Shown here: one piece after another, positions 31,914 to 35,658 of the stretch
How positions within the stretch are numbered: the stretch's first letter is position 1
How the letters are laid out: each line of letters starts with the position of its first letter
NCBI RefSeq assembly: GCF_003952505.1
Contig: NZ_CP034450.1
Coordinates: forward strand, 1,178,001-1,242,000
Direction: 5' to 3'
DNA from: Mesorhizobium sp. M4B.F.Ca.ET.058.02.1.1
Lineage (GTDB): Bacteria > Pseudomonadota > Alphaproteobacteria > Rhizobiales > Rhizobiaceae
Length of the DNA: 64,000 bases
Position numbers and translations under genes: made by a program
Notes under the pieces: generated by a model
Told to the model about the DNA's origin: nothing
Database searches by the model: none
What the model saw: only the letters and a program-made list of their open reading frames with translations

Positions 31914-32285
31914 ATGAGCCGCATCGTCATGTACGACCAGATCGGCGCCCGCAAACCGGTCCAGAGCTTCGTCCTGGACTGGAAGGACGGCGTGCCGTGC
32001 ACGCTCCGGCAGATCATCGCCGAACGCGTGCTGCTGGAGCATGACAGGTTGCACGCCTCGCGCAACGACGCAGCGATAGAGACGCTGCTCTATGCGCCAA
32101 ACACCGGACCGCTCAAGAAGACGAACCCGGACTTGGCGGTGGCGGCGGCGATCGAGGCCTTCTCGCGCAACGCCTTCATGGTCGTCGTCGGCGGCAAGCA
32201 AATGATTGCGCTGGACGATGTGGCCGTCATTTCAGCGCGCACGGACGTCGTCTTCATAAAGCTTTTGCGGCTCAAGGGGGGTTGA
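31914..32285 (+). CDS. Candidate ubiquitin-like beta-grasp protein with C-terminal Gly-Gly
   Basis: The product has 123 residues with no signal peptide or membrane segment. Residues 15-24 look like a first strand pair (VQSFVLDWKD), and 29-45 like a helix (CTLRQIIAERVLLEHDR). A variable stretch to about 86 follows, then a helix end AIEAFSRNA. Residues 88-123 follow the MoaD/ThiS plan: FMVVVGGKQ (hairpin), IALDDVAVIS, then DVVFIKLLRLKGG, with the stop directly after Gly-Gly. Ubiquitin ends in LRLRGG. The strands are inferred by eye. GGAGG lies 6 bases before the ATG. The gene ends 4 bases before the DUF4132 gene, so they are co-expressed. No E1-, E2- or JAB-like gene is in the window. Confidence 0.7.
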   Translation: MSRIVMYDQIGARKPVQSFVLDWKDGVPCTLRQIIAERVLLEHDRLHASRNDAAIETLLYAPNTGPLKKTNPDLAVAAAIEAFSRNAFMVVVGGKQMIALDDVAVISARTDVVFIKLLRLKGG

Positions 32286-32289
32286 GTGG

Positions 32290-35200
32290 ATGGGCAATGG
32301 AAGGTTGTTTTCGGGTCTCAGGGCAGCGGCCGCTGCATTCGGCAAGGTCGTCGCCGGCGCCCCGCGTGCGAACGAGCCGGCGCCGCTCGCCGACATAAAT
32401 AGGATGGTCGAGCGCCTCCATCGCGCCCATGCCGACCGGGAGCGGAGCGAGGCGGAGACATTGGCGCGGGATATCGAGCTGGCCTCATCCGCCGGCGGCT
32501 CGCGTCCGATGATGGCCGAACTCGTAGCCCTCATCCGTGCCTATGACACCGCGAACTCGGAGCAGGACCGCAAGGATATCGCGAGCCGCCTGCGCGCTTT
32601 GTCAGCGGAACAGCGCGGCGGATTGTTCGATGCCATCGACTTCCTGCGGGCACGCTTCGGCTGGGGTCCTGAGGTGGCCGTCTATGTGCGCAGCCGGGAG
32701 GGCAAGACCCCGCCCAAATTCGCGCGCTTCTGCGAGAGCTTGAGCCGGGATCTCCTGCGCAGCGGCTTCCAGACGAACGCGCCGAGAACCGCCACCGCGC
32801 TTCGGCTGCTCGCGAACGACCAGGCCGGCATGCACCTCAAGGGCACGATCGGCTGGTCGGGCGGATTGCCCAAGCTCGGCATCGTCCGCGAGATCGAGCG
32901 CGCGGTGAAAAACGGACAGGCGCTCGGCGCCGAAGACCGGGCCAACGCCGCCAGGCTCATCGCGCTGGTTTGCGATACGCAGTACTACAAAAACAGGACC
33001 GGACCGGAAAAGACCGATCCACCACTGATCGTTTCGCTGAAGGCGCTTGCCGGGGCCGGCCAGCAGGACAGTTTCTTTGCGCGCATGCGGGCCAATCCGC
33101 CGGCAAAACTTCCCCACCTGCGCTACACGCCGCCGCCGTCCGACAAGGCGGAATTTTGGGACGACGTGCTGACGGAACTGGCGCCGATGTTCGAGGACAT
33201 CCGCGCCTACGCCGGCGACAGGACGGTGCATAACTGGCTGACCGACCGACAGGCGTTCGCCGCCCGTTTCGGCTCCGGCGATGGCAGTGCCGCCTTCAGG
33301 TTCGGCTGGTGGGCGCGCGACACCAAGGGCGAGGAAGGTTTTCACAAGGACTACAACAACCATCTCAGTCGCATGCTGAGCGAGGAAAAACCCGAATGGC
33401 GACAGCTCGCGACCGCCGCGCAAATGGCGATGCTGCGCGCCGTGGGGCCGAGCTTCGATCGGGGTTGGCCGCAGGACTTCACGAGGGCCGGCACGCGGGT
33501 CGAAGCGTTCGAATTCGGCGGCGGGGACCCTGACGGCAGCCTGCTCAACCATCTGGTTGCCGCGGGCGATGGCGCGCCGGGGACGACCTGGCTGAAGGAT
33601 TGCGAACGCAAGATCGCAGCCCTTGGGCACGACGCGGTGGCCGACGGTTTCAGGCAGTGGCTCAAACCGCTCTGCGAACCGGCGCTGCCGGAGATCGAGC
33701 GCGACGTCTATATCGGCCTCGAAGCCTACAGCCTGGTGTTCAGCCCGCAGAATGCATCGGTGTTTCCGACACCGCTGCCGGAACGGGAGTCGGCGGGTTA
33801 CGAGGCGGCGGTGCGGCAGTCCGCGCTGAAGGCGATCTGCGCGATACCGGGCCTGCTGTTCCAGCGTGCGGCCGGGGACTATGTACCCTGGCAATTTGAT
33901 CTTGGCCGACTGCACGGCGAATTGTCGCCCGACAATGTCGCGGTAGCACGCGGCATTGGCTTGGCCCTGTCCCGCCTGCCGGCCGACAAGGCGCTCCCGC
34001 TGCTGGAATCGCTGGCAGGCGCGACGCTGATCAAGACAGGGCATCACGGACGTACCGTGCGTTCGCAAAAGACAGGGGCGGCCTGCGTCTGGTCGCTCGG
34101 CCAGCTGGGCACCGCGGACGCGGCCTATGCGCTTGGGCGCCTTCGCCGCAGGATCGACGACAAAGTGGTGATCAAGTCGATCGACAAGGCGCTGGAAGCG
34201 GCGGGCAGCAAGCTCGGCCTGTCGGGCGACGACATGCAGGAAATCGCCATGGCCGAGTACGGCATCGGCGATGGCGGGCTTCGTGTCGAGGAACTGGGCG
34301 GCGTTCGCGTCGAGTTGCGCGTTGTCTCGTCGGCCAAGGCCGAGTTGCGCAGCATCGACGCCAAGGGTAAGTCGAGCCGCGGCATCGCCAAGGATTTCAA
34401 GGCGGCACCCGGCGGTAGCGAAATGGCGGGCGAGTTGGAAGATGCGGCGAAGGACATCGCGCTGATTCTGCCGGAAGCGCGGCGCCGCATCGAGAGCGCC
34501 TGGCGCGACGGCCGCCACTGGAATTACCAGGGCTGGCAGGACCGGCTGATCGGCAATGGCCTGCTGCGCACGCTTTCCGAGCGCCTGATCTGGCGTTTTG
34601 CGGGTCCCAAGGGCGAGGCGTTCGTCGCCATGCCGCGCGAAGGCGAGCTTGTCGATCATGCCGGCGTTCGCTGCCCGGTTCCAGGACCGGACTGGACGGT
34701 CCACCTTTGGCATCCGCTGGACAGCCCGGCCACGACCGTCGCGGCCTGGCGCGAGAGCCTCGCCAGGCAGACGATCCAGCAGCCCTTCATCCAGGCCTGG
34801 CGGCCGGTCTACGTCGTCACCGACGCCGAGCTTGCCACACGCAGCTACTCCAACCGCTTCGCCGCGCACATATTGGAGCAGGCTCCAGTTATGGCCATCC
34901 TGAAGAAGCGCGGCTGGACGGCGTACAATCGCAGCATGCACGGCAACAATGCCGAGCATGAACGGGTGCGGCTCACCTTGCCGTATCATGGTGTCGCCGC
35001 CGAGTTCTGGGTCGCCGGCATCGGCACGCGCGTGCAGGACATCGAGGCGGCCGAGCGCGGCGCCGCGCTCTACGCCTTCATCGCCACGGATCGGGTGGCC
35101 TTCTTCGCGCTCGACCCCAAGACCGGGCAGCCGGGCGAAATTCCCCTACCCGTCGATGCGGTCCCTCCCCGCGCGTTCTGCGAGGCGATGTACGACATCG

Positions 35201-35658
35201 ACAGCGTGATCGGCCGCACCTCGATCGGCAACGACCGCCACTGGCAGGATCGCGGCAGCAACGCGCGCCACCCGCTGTCTGAGCGGCCTGAATTCCTCGA
35301 CTACCGCGAGCGCTATTCGGCAGGACAGGCCAGCGGCCTGGCAAAGGGCCGACGCGATTTCATCGCCACCATCCTGCCCGGCCTCGCGATTGCCAACCAG
35401 TGCACGGTCACGGACGAGTTCCTGATCGTTGACGGCAAGCGCAAGACCTACAGGATCAACTTCGCATCCGGACACATCAGGATGGCGCCCAACGACCGCT
35501 ATCTCTGCATCGTGCCGTCAAACGAGGCGGCCGGGCCGAGGCCGGCCTATGTGCCGTTCGAGGGCGACGACATCCTGTCAGTCATCCTGTCGAAGGCGAT
35601 GATGCTGGCCAATGACGACAAGATAACCGACGGCTCGATCCTGCGTCAGATCGCTTGA
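32290..35658 (+). CDS. DUF4132 domain protein (large, WGR-less)
   Basis: The 1122-residue cytosolic protein has no signal peptide or membrane segment. The N-terminal half is helical. HEAT-like repeats occur around residues 590-640 (GRTVRSQKTGAACVWSLGQLG). The DUF4132 core starts near residue 740 with HWNYQGWQDRLIGNGLLRTLS and ERLIWRF, followed by VHLWHPLDSP and QPFIQAWRPVY. The end (DILSVILSKAMMLANDDKITD) matches the C-terminal domain often found with DUF4132. The E. coli relative YehI/MolR carries a WGR domain that is not visible here. The gene forms a two-gene operon with the Gly-Gly protein. The molecular role of the family is unknown; in other bacteria DUF4132 genes are reported near MoxR and vWA genes. 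Confidence 0.88.
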   Translation: MGNGRLFSGLRAAAAAFGKVVAGAPRANEPAPLADINRMVERLHRAHADRERSEAETLARDIELASSAGGSRPMMAELVALIRAYDTANSEQDRKDIASRLRALSAEQRGGLFDAIDFLRARFGWGPEVAVYVRSREGKTPPKFARFCESLSRDLLRSGFQTNAPRTATALRLLANDQAGMHLKGTIGWSGGLPKLGIVREIERAVKNGQALGAEDRANAARLIALVCDTQYYKNRTGPEKTDPPLIVSLKALAGAGQQDSFFARMRANPPAKLPHLRYTPPPSDKAEFWDDVLTELAPMFEDIRAYAGDRTVHNWLTDRQAFAARFGSGDGSAAFRFGWWARDTKGEEGFHKDYNNHLSRMLSEEKPEWRQLATAAQMAMLRAVGPSFDRGWPQDFTRAGTRVEAFEFGGGDPDGSLLNHLVAAGDGAPGTTWLKDCERKIAALGHDAVADGFRQWLKPLCEPALPEIERDVYIGLEAYSLVFSPQNASVFPTPLPERESAGYEAAVRQSALKAICAIPGLLFQRAAGDYVPWQFDLGRLHGELSPDNVAVARGIGLALSRLPADKALPLLESLAGATLIKTGHHGRTVRSQKTGAACVWSLGQLGTADAAYALGRLRRRIDDKVVIKSIDKALEAAGSKLGLSGDDMQEIAMAEYGIGDGGLRVEELGGVRVELRVVSSAKAELRSIDAKGKSSRGIAKDFKAAPGGSEMAGELEDAAKDIALILPEARRRIESAWRDGRHWNYQGWQDRLIGNGLLRTLSERLIWRFAGPKGEAFVAMPREGELVDHAGVRCPVPGPDWTVHLWHPLDSPATTVAAWRESLARQTIQQPFIQAWRPVYVVTDAELATRSYSNRFAAHILEQAPVMAILKKRGWTAYNRSMHGNNAEHERVRLTLPYHGVAAEFWVAGIGTRVQDIEAAERGAALYAFIATDRVAFFALDPKTGQPGEIPLPVDAVPPRAFCEAMYDIDSVIGRTSIGNDRHWQDRGSNARHPLSERPEFLDYRERYSAGQASGLAKGRRDFIATILPGLAIANQCTVTDEFLIVDGKRKTYRINFASGHIRMAPNDRYLCIVPSNEAAGPRPAYVPFEGDDILSVILSKAMMLANDDKITDGSILRQIA

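What the first reader, a model, noticed from the sequence alone, without database searches (positions are those of the whole stretch)
31914..35658. Two-gene operon: ubiquitin/MoaD-like Gly-Gly protein plus a giant DUF4132 protein
Seen: the 123-residue protein ends exactly at LRLKGG, close to ubiquitin's LRLRGG. Residues 88-123 follow the MoaD/ThiS order of strand, turn, Leu-Asp segment, strand and Gly-Gly. The 1122-residue DUF4132 gene starts 4 bases later. Known: beta-grasp proteins with exposed C-terminal Gly-Gly are activated by E1-like enzymes for sulfur transfer or conjugation, and bacterial conjugation-like operons exist in defence. Inference: the small protein may be a modifier or sulfur carrier, and DUF4132 a partner, ligase-like factor or target. 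No E1, E2 or JAB gene is nearby, so cellular E1-like proteins (MoeB/ThiF) would have to serve it, or the tail may act non-covalently.
Basis: partly seen in the sequence, partly recalled or inferred. Interest (0 to 1): 0.9.

Follow-up and report, generated by a model that had tools for sequence, protein, structure and literature searches.

The report
Ubiquitin-like tail paired with partner cysteine
A small, probably ubiquitin-like bacterial protein ending in two glycines is encoded beside a giant partner, and where that ending is changed or missing the partner has often lost one conserved cysteine too, which hints at an unrecognised tail-to-cysteine chemistry in a stress-linked gene pair.

Summary
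In detail: a 123-aa gene (31914-32285) ending LRLKGG, then, 4 bases on, a 1122-aa gene (32290-35658) with Pfam DUF4132 and, at its C-terminus, DUF7737. The pair is rare (4 of 146 genus genomes) but spans four phyla. Of 20 small-protein homologues read, 18 end exactly in GG and two in GRLW. Ten tested DUF4132 proteins from loci without the small gene lack DUF7737. New: a DUF7737 cysteine (Cys1073, YLCIVP) is kept in 17 of 17 partners of GG proteins, lost in 3 of 3 rows of the GRLW genomes and in 2 of 5 rows with no linked partner. Of 33 conserved columns, only Cys1073 and Ala846 differ in all three GRLW rows. The Deinococcus copy is drA0165-drA0166, a DNA-damage (DdrO) target; DR_A0165 was threaded onto MoaD/Urm1/SAMP folds in print. 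Best reading: a Gly-Gly ubiquitin-like protein, activated by a housekeeping E1, whose tail meets Cys1073. My own fold prediction failed (pLDDT 40); the fold rests on published threading and a weak profile match. Conjugation, sulfur transfer and plain docking remain open.

The parts
31914..32285 (+). small protein, 123 aa, ends LRLKGG; no match in Pfam, NCBIfam (E 10) or PADLOC (E 0.01)
32277..32282 (+). codons of the terminal Gly122-Gly123
   Evidence: sequence; 18 of 20 homologues end exactly here
32290..35658 (+). giant partner, 1122 aa, DUF4132 + DUF7737
34426..34917 (+). DUF4132 domain (PF13569), residues 713-876
34825..34827 (+). Ala846, one of two residues that change in all GRLW rows
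35344..35652 (+). DUF7737 domain (PF24879), residues 1019-1121
35506..35508 (+). Cys1073 of the YLCIVP motif, candidate site that meets the GG tail

Best explanation
The two genes form one working unit. The small protein is a ubiquitin-like Gly-Gly protein (inferred from the tail, the published threading of its Deinococcus homologue and a weak profile match). Its C-terminal carboxylate is activated by a housekeeping MoeB/ThiF-type E1 (inferred). The activated tail is received by Cys1073 of DUF7737 in the giant partner, as a thioester or acyl-sulfide; Ala846 of DUF4132 may help form the tail pocket (inferred from co-variation). The partner then most likely hands the small protein to targets (E2/E3-like), under stress: in Deinococcus the operon is a DNA-damage (DdrO/IrrE) target. 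In a side branch the tail has become GRLW and the cysteine is gone, probably leaving a non-covalent complex. Shown: gene pairing, tail conservation, tail-cysteine co-variation. Inferred: fold, activation, thioester, targets.
For: Pairing: 19 of 20 small-protein genes sit beside a DUF4132-DUF7737 gene while other neighbours vary. Tail: 18 of 20 end exactly GG; in 16 aligned rows only V39, A79, L120 and G122 are invariant, with L100, L117, G123 nearly so. Specificity: 10 DUF4132 C-termini (of 14 such genes in 8 genomes) have no DUF7737 match at E 0.1, and tblastn finds no small-protein homologue in the stretches fetched around them. Co-variation: Cys1073 in 17 of 17 GG-paired rows; absent in 3 of 3 rows of the two GRLW genomes and in 2 of 5 rows without a linked partner. 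Of 33 columns conserved in at least 16 of 17 GG rows, only A846 and C1073 differ in all three GRLW rows. E1: a PF00899 match of at least 243 bits in all 9 GG genomes tested; G1181 (GRLW) tops out at 127 bits and has no PF02597 match. Regulation and fold in print: PMC8533742 and PMC9650054, passages; the printed RDRM is in place.
Against: Three Cys1073 rows lack a linked GG gene: Nonomuraea L023 (that genome has a GG gene at another locus, L063) and two tandem genes of G1412, where none was found in the genome (contig edge, about 310 contigs). The GRLW rows are one clade, so one event; the other two losses (Acetobacter, searched only on one plasmid; G1246, a partial, below-cut-off match) sit on long, unsure branches. 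The five-row comparison was set up after I had seen the cysteine column; the three-row GRLW one is defined by the tail. Ala846 is also often Ala in DUF7737-less proteins. In PMC9650054, 157 proteins co-purified with N- and with C-terminally tagged DR_A0165 alike: those contacts need no free GG end. The cysteine may be structural. The AlphaFold model failed, and the profile match to ThiS/MoaD vanishes without the tail (13.5 versus best shuffle 15.3). E1 presence is near universal, so it tests little. I know of no reported adduct or thiocarboxylate.
Confidence: 0.47

Rival explanations
1. Non-covalent complex: the small protein is a ubiquitin-like subunit whose tail inserts into a pocket of the giant partner, without activation. 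Cys1073 and Ala846 line the pocket and co-vary with the tail for packing reasons.
For: Explains pairing, tail conservation and co-variation without a dedicated E1; the GRLW genomes keep both proteins without GG or Cys; Ala846 is Glu, Asp, Asp in the three GRLW rows and could pair with the Arg of GRLW (inference); C-terminally tagged DR_A0165 still co-purified with the same 157 proteins (PMC9650054 passage).
Against: An exact Gly-Gly end in 18 of 20 is the mark of activated tails (general knowledge); a cysteine is what is kept with it.
Confidence: 0.3
2. Sulfur carrier unit: the small protein is a MoaD/ThiS-like thiocarboxylate carrier and the partner is the acceptor enzyme of an unknown sulfur-containing product, without conjugation to proteins.
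For: Two-gene carrier-plus-acceptor layout resembles MoaD-MoaE and ThiS-ThiG (recalled); published threading of DR_A0165 found MoaD, Urm1 and SAMP folds; MolR (a DUF4132 protein by my recall) was linked to molybdate (Lee 1990, seen only as a cited reference).
Against: No cofactor or sulfur gene recurs in the annotated neighbourhoods seen (one, L025, has thi and mod genes nearby); PMC8533742 reports that moeA and moeB did not respond to DdrO depletion; Pfam shows no MoaE or ThiG domain in the partners scanned.
Confidence: 0.2
3. Operon linkage only: no common chemistry, the GG end a by-product of how the last strand ends.
For: Patchy distribution (4 of 146 in the genus; 11 of 592 genomes in two DUF7737 searches).
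Against: Four phyla, constant order, co-variation of tail and cysteine.
Confidence: 0.03

Closest known systems
DR_A0165 / SEP068184 and DRA0166 of Deinococcus radiodurans (PMC9650054, PMC8533742; passages read)
   Same: Homologue of this pair: same order, GG end, DUF4132-DUF7737 partner; the RDRM printed for drA0165 lies at L025 1669-1688, upstream of the GG gene.
   Different: PMC9650054 calls the small protein Deinococcus-only and finds no RDRM; the passages seen mention a conserved C-terminal region but neither Gly-Gly chemistry nor the partner's cysteine. The partner has an extra DUF5724.
ThiS/MoaD/Urm1/SAMP/TtuB Gly-Gly beta-grasp proteins
   Same: Small, exact C-terminal Gly-Gly.
   Different: No match to PF02597; longer, with a variable middle; weak profile similarity only.
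MoaD-MoaE molybdopterin synthase
   Same: Carrier plus partner pair (recalled).
   Different: Partner shows no MoaE domain and is far larger.
Bacterial ubiquitin-like operons with E1, E2, JAB (PMC1779556, passages; Bil/Bub recalled)
   Same: A Gly-Gly ubiquitin-like protein in a patchily distributed operon.
   Different: No E1, E2 or JAB annotated beside the pair in the five annotated records.
DUF4132 proteins without DUF7737 (E. coli is a DUF4132 control hit and not a DUF7737 hit)
   Same: Share DUF4132.
   Different: Ten tested lack DUF7737, and their stretches hold no small GG gene.

Membership tests
Gly-Gly ubiquitin-like / sulfur-carrier proteins | exposed C-terminal Gly-Gly | tested here: met
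   18 of 20 homologues end exactly GG, 2 end GRLW
Gly-Gly ubiquitin-like / sulfur-carrier proteins | beta-grasp fold | tested here: inconclusive
   AlphaFold pLDDT 40.3 with strands 2-6, 17-21 and helices 31-49, 52-58, 72-85, rest without structure; published I-TASSER threading of DR_A0165 onto MoaD/Urm1/SAMP
ThiS/MoaD family (PF02597) | sequence match to the family | tested here: not met
   PF02597 not among the families matched by any of 10 members; hhalign 17.3 versus best of 150 shuffles 16.8, lost without the tail
Gly-Gly ubiquitin-like / sulfur-carrier proteins | an E1-like adenylating enzyme in the cell | tested here: met
   PF00899 in 10 of 10 genomes; at least 243 bits in the 9 with GG, 127 in G1181; also in 12 of 14 control genomes, so weak
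Gly-Gly ubiquitin-like / sulfur-carrier proteins | thiocarboxylate or isopeptide adduct | not testable with these tools
   needs mass spectrometry
E2/E3-like thioester enzymes | conserved cysteine that meets the modifier tail | tested here: inconclusive
   Cys1073 in 17 of 17 GG-paired rows, 0 of 3 GRLW rows, 3 of 5 rows without linked partner; no contact or thioester tested
E1-E2-JAB bacterial ubiquitination operons | E1, E2 or JAB gene in the operon | tested here: not met
   none among annotated neighbours in 5 records (that gene table is incomplete); neighbours elsewhere were not scanned by profile, except five in the window
DUF4132 (PF13569) and DUF7737 (PF24879) | profile over curated cut-off | tested here: met
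   125 and 111 bits, cut-off 27

The most novel reading that the evidence does not exclude
DUF4132-DUF7737 proteins are a new class of ubiquitin-like transferase: Cys1073 carries the small protein as a thioester and hands it to targets in a DNA-damage or oxidative-stress response, with a housekeeping E1 and no E2; a sister branch swapped GG/Cys for a GRLW/acidic non-covalent pair.
Probability: 0.26. Interest if true: 0.93.

Novelty: new variant of a known kind. Interest (0 to 1): 0.76.

Why it matters
It joins an orphan stress protein of Deinococcus, a giant uncharacterised family and a Gly-Gly tail into one testable unit found in four phyla, and names one cysteine to mutate. If the tail is loaded on that cysteine, bacteria have a minimal ubiquitin-like pathway whose partner enzyme shows no Pfam domain of known E2 or E3 enzymes.

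Tried and rejected
Profile searches of the small protein: Pfam, NCBIfam, PHROGs, PADLOC and PDB sequences gave nothing convincing (the best were single members at E 0.01 to 1). Viral contigs: no relative in three scans; phage records: none with the Nonomuraea protein, the only query tried there. LexA-type boxes: four recalled exact patterns, none within 300 bases upstream of 15 loci, so a DNA-damage link is shown for Deinococcus only. Fusobacterium hit H51: no open frame at the match, chance. G581 profile hit (E 0.0095) has a stop inside and was dropped. hhalign against MoaD, ThiS and a third subset separately scored within the shuffles. Rows dropped: G297 is not in the cysteine table because my text search did not find its C-terminal piece; its big gene is interrupted. 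The two DUF7737 genes of G1181 are paired in my table with one unlinked small gene. A third DUF4132 place in the Nonomuraea record was not looked at. Fold search was not run: the model was too poor. The second structure job was not used.
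Full report
Observation. The window (a 6.46 Mb genome in one contig; the same-genus G297 holds a contig of the same length as a Mesorhizobium record with the 98% twin) holds a 123-aa gene at 31914-32285 that ends LRLKGG and, after 4 bases, a 1122-aa gene at 32290-35658. Pfam gives DUF4132 at residues 713-876 and DUF7737 at 1019-1121 of the big protein, nothing for the small one. 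Window neighbours include YceD, ubiquinol-cytochrome c chaperone, BamE, H+-pyrophosphatase and an MFS protein.

How common. The small protein matches 1 of 297 family genomes (the window's own), 4 of 146 genus genomes (own included), and with a 5-row profile 4 of 385 class genomes, one of which (G581) I dropped as spurious. The big protein matches 5 of 146 genus genomes, the fifth (G155) being a 38-residue remnant. So the pair is accessory, but not confined: it occurs in Novosphingobium, unnamed Pseudomonadota, four Deinococcus, Nonomuraea and, with another tail, Bacteroides finegoldii.

The tail. Twenty homologues were read: window, G297, G367, G312, N. humi, G716, G606, G827, G987, four Deinococcus, Nonomuraea (L063), G1189, G1204, G1557, G1413, B. 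finegoldii and G1181. Eighteen end exactly in Gly-Gly; B. finegoldii and G1181 end in GRLW. In 16 aligned rows (15 GG rows and B. finegoldii) only V39, A79, L120 and G122 are invariant, with L100, L117 and G123 next. Background: 1 of 134 other called genes of 80 aa or more in 11 loci ends in GG (the calls in L023 are unreliable).

The co-occurring domain is DUF7737. In 398 phylum genomes, 11 had DUF4132. Three of them (own, G827, G987) have the small gene. From the other eight, 10 of 14 DUF4132 genes were tested: none has a DUF7737 match, and tblastn finds no small-protein homologue in the stretches fetched. Two searches with DUF7737 itself found 5 of 295 and 6 of 297 genomes. Of these 11, seven have a GG gene beside it (G827, G1189, G1204, G1557, G1413, G000, G987); G1181 has two DUF7737 genes and an unlinked GRLW small gene; G1412 has two tandem genes at a contig edge and no small gene found; G1246 (below cut-off) and G155 (remnant) have none. 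DUF7737 was confirmed by profile in these and in six proteins; in the remaining rows it rests on alignment.

Tail and cysteine. I aligned 25 DUF7737 rows. All 17 rows with a GG partner keep a cysteine in the motif YLCIVP (Cys1073 in the window). Eight rows have no linked GG gene. Five of these lost the cysteine: B. finegoldii (Ala) and G1181a and b (Ser, Pro), whose small proteins end in GRLW; Acetobacter (Phe; no small gene on that plasmid); G1246 (Val; none found). Three keep it: Nonomuraea L023 (a GG gene exists at L063 of the same record) and G1412a/b. Of 33 columns conserved in at least 16 of the 17 GG rows, only Cys1073 and Ala846 differ in all three GRLW rows, and the same two in all five Cys-less rows (the five-row set was chosen after seeing the cysteine column, the GRLW set is defined by the tail). 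Ala846 is often Ala also in DUF7737-less proteins. A tree of the DUF4132 part puts B. finegoldii and both G1181 genes in one clade (96/98) in the group that holds Deinococcus and G1189; Acetobacter and G1246 lie elsewhere on long branches whose place is unsure. So the GRLW switch is one event, and there may be two more losses. This is the main new evidence; few events and three exceptions are its weak points.

Fold. My AlphaFold run, limited to the window protein and its 98% twin, failed: pLDDT 40.3; it shows strands 2-6 and 17-21 and helices 31-49, 52-58 and 72-85, nothing after residue 85. Profile comparison with 23 ThiS/MoaD-family proteins of the same genomes aligned GG to GG with a score just above shuffles (18.3 versus 14.7 of 60; 17.3 versus 16.8 of 150), lost without the tail (13.5 versus 15.3), and absent against MoaD or ThiS subsets alone. 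In print, I-TASSER threading of DR_A0165 gave 5MPO, 3PO0, 1WGK, 1VJK and others, which the authors tie to the molybdopterin synthase complex and SAMP1 (PMC9650054, passages). So the beta-grasp fold is likely, not shown here.

The Deinococcus copy. The RDRM printed for drA0165 in PMC8533742 is found exactly at L025 1669-1688, upstream of the GG gene at 1751, which identifies the L025 pair as drA0165-drA0166. Matches to the printed consensus lie upstream in three more Deinococcus (1, 1 and 2 mismatches). PMC8533742 (passages) lists drA0165, 'putatively in operon with drA0166', among DdrO targets, calls the operon strongly upregulated on DdrO depletion, and reports that DRA0166-V5 rises after mitomycin C in wild type but not in an irrE mutant. 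PMC9650054 (passages) reports that loss of DR_A0165 raises H2O2 survival, that the protein binds Trx1 (neighbour DR_A0164), that 157 proteins co-purified with both N- and C-tagged forms, and that it occurs only in Deinococcus without an RDRM; the last two statements disagree. None of four exact LexA-type patterns was found upstream of 15 loci.

Mechanism. Shown: pairing, tail conservation, tail-cysteine co-variation. Inferred: the tail is activated by a housekeeping E1 (PF00899 in 10 of 10 genomes, strong in the 9 with GG, weaker in GRLW-bearing G1181, which also lacks ThiS/MoaD; one genome only) and meets Cys1073. Whether the product is a conjugate or a sulfur transfer, or whether the tail only docks, is open. 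I put tail-to-cysteine chemistry at 0.47, docking at 0.30, plain sulfur carriage at 0.20.

Literature search. 'DUF4132' gave 3 papers; 'DUF7737', 'DUF5724', 'yehI', 'yehL' gave 625 papers, and none of the 15 listed held either DUF name; 'DRA0165/0166' gave 28, two relevant among the 15 listed. I saw no text that describes this pair as a Gly-Gly system; the library is partial and no paper was read whole. PMC1779556 (passages) describes other bacterial ubiquitin-like operons with E1, E2 and JAB; passages of PMC1949818, PMC7824862 and PMC4245954 added nothing on this pair.

Noticed in passing
L002 6377-8551 (G297): In the nearest relative the small gene is 98% identical and intact while the big gene is interrupted (724-aa frame, further pieces downstream).
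   Followed up: partly
G155:C14:47001-47114 (L021): A short remnant of the DUF7737 end in another genome of the genus, with no small-protein match in that genome: sign of loss.
   Followed up: partly
window 24000-46000 and L019: By eye, G367 carries the pair near some of the same neighbour genes as the window but at another spot, as if inserted twice.
   Followed up: no
L047, L048, L054: DUF4132 genes without DUF7737 occur as two or three neighbouring copies.
   Followed up: no
L026 60-2116 and 6837-9011: A Burkholderia plasmid has moaA, moaE and moaD about 5 kb from a DUF4132 gene.
   Followed up: no
L106 1501-1941, L062 4572-4991: GRLW is shared by a Pseudomonadota (G1181) and a Bacteroides homologue, and Ala846 is Asp or Glu in their partners: a possible Arg-acid pair.
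   Followed up: partly
L025 1669-1688: The RDRM that PMC9650054 says is absent upstream of DR_A0165 is present, as PMC8533742 reports.
   Followed up: yes
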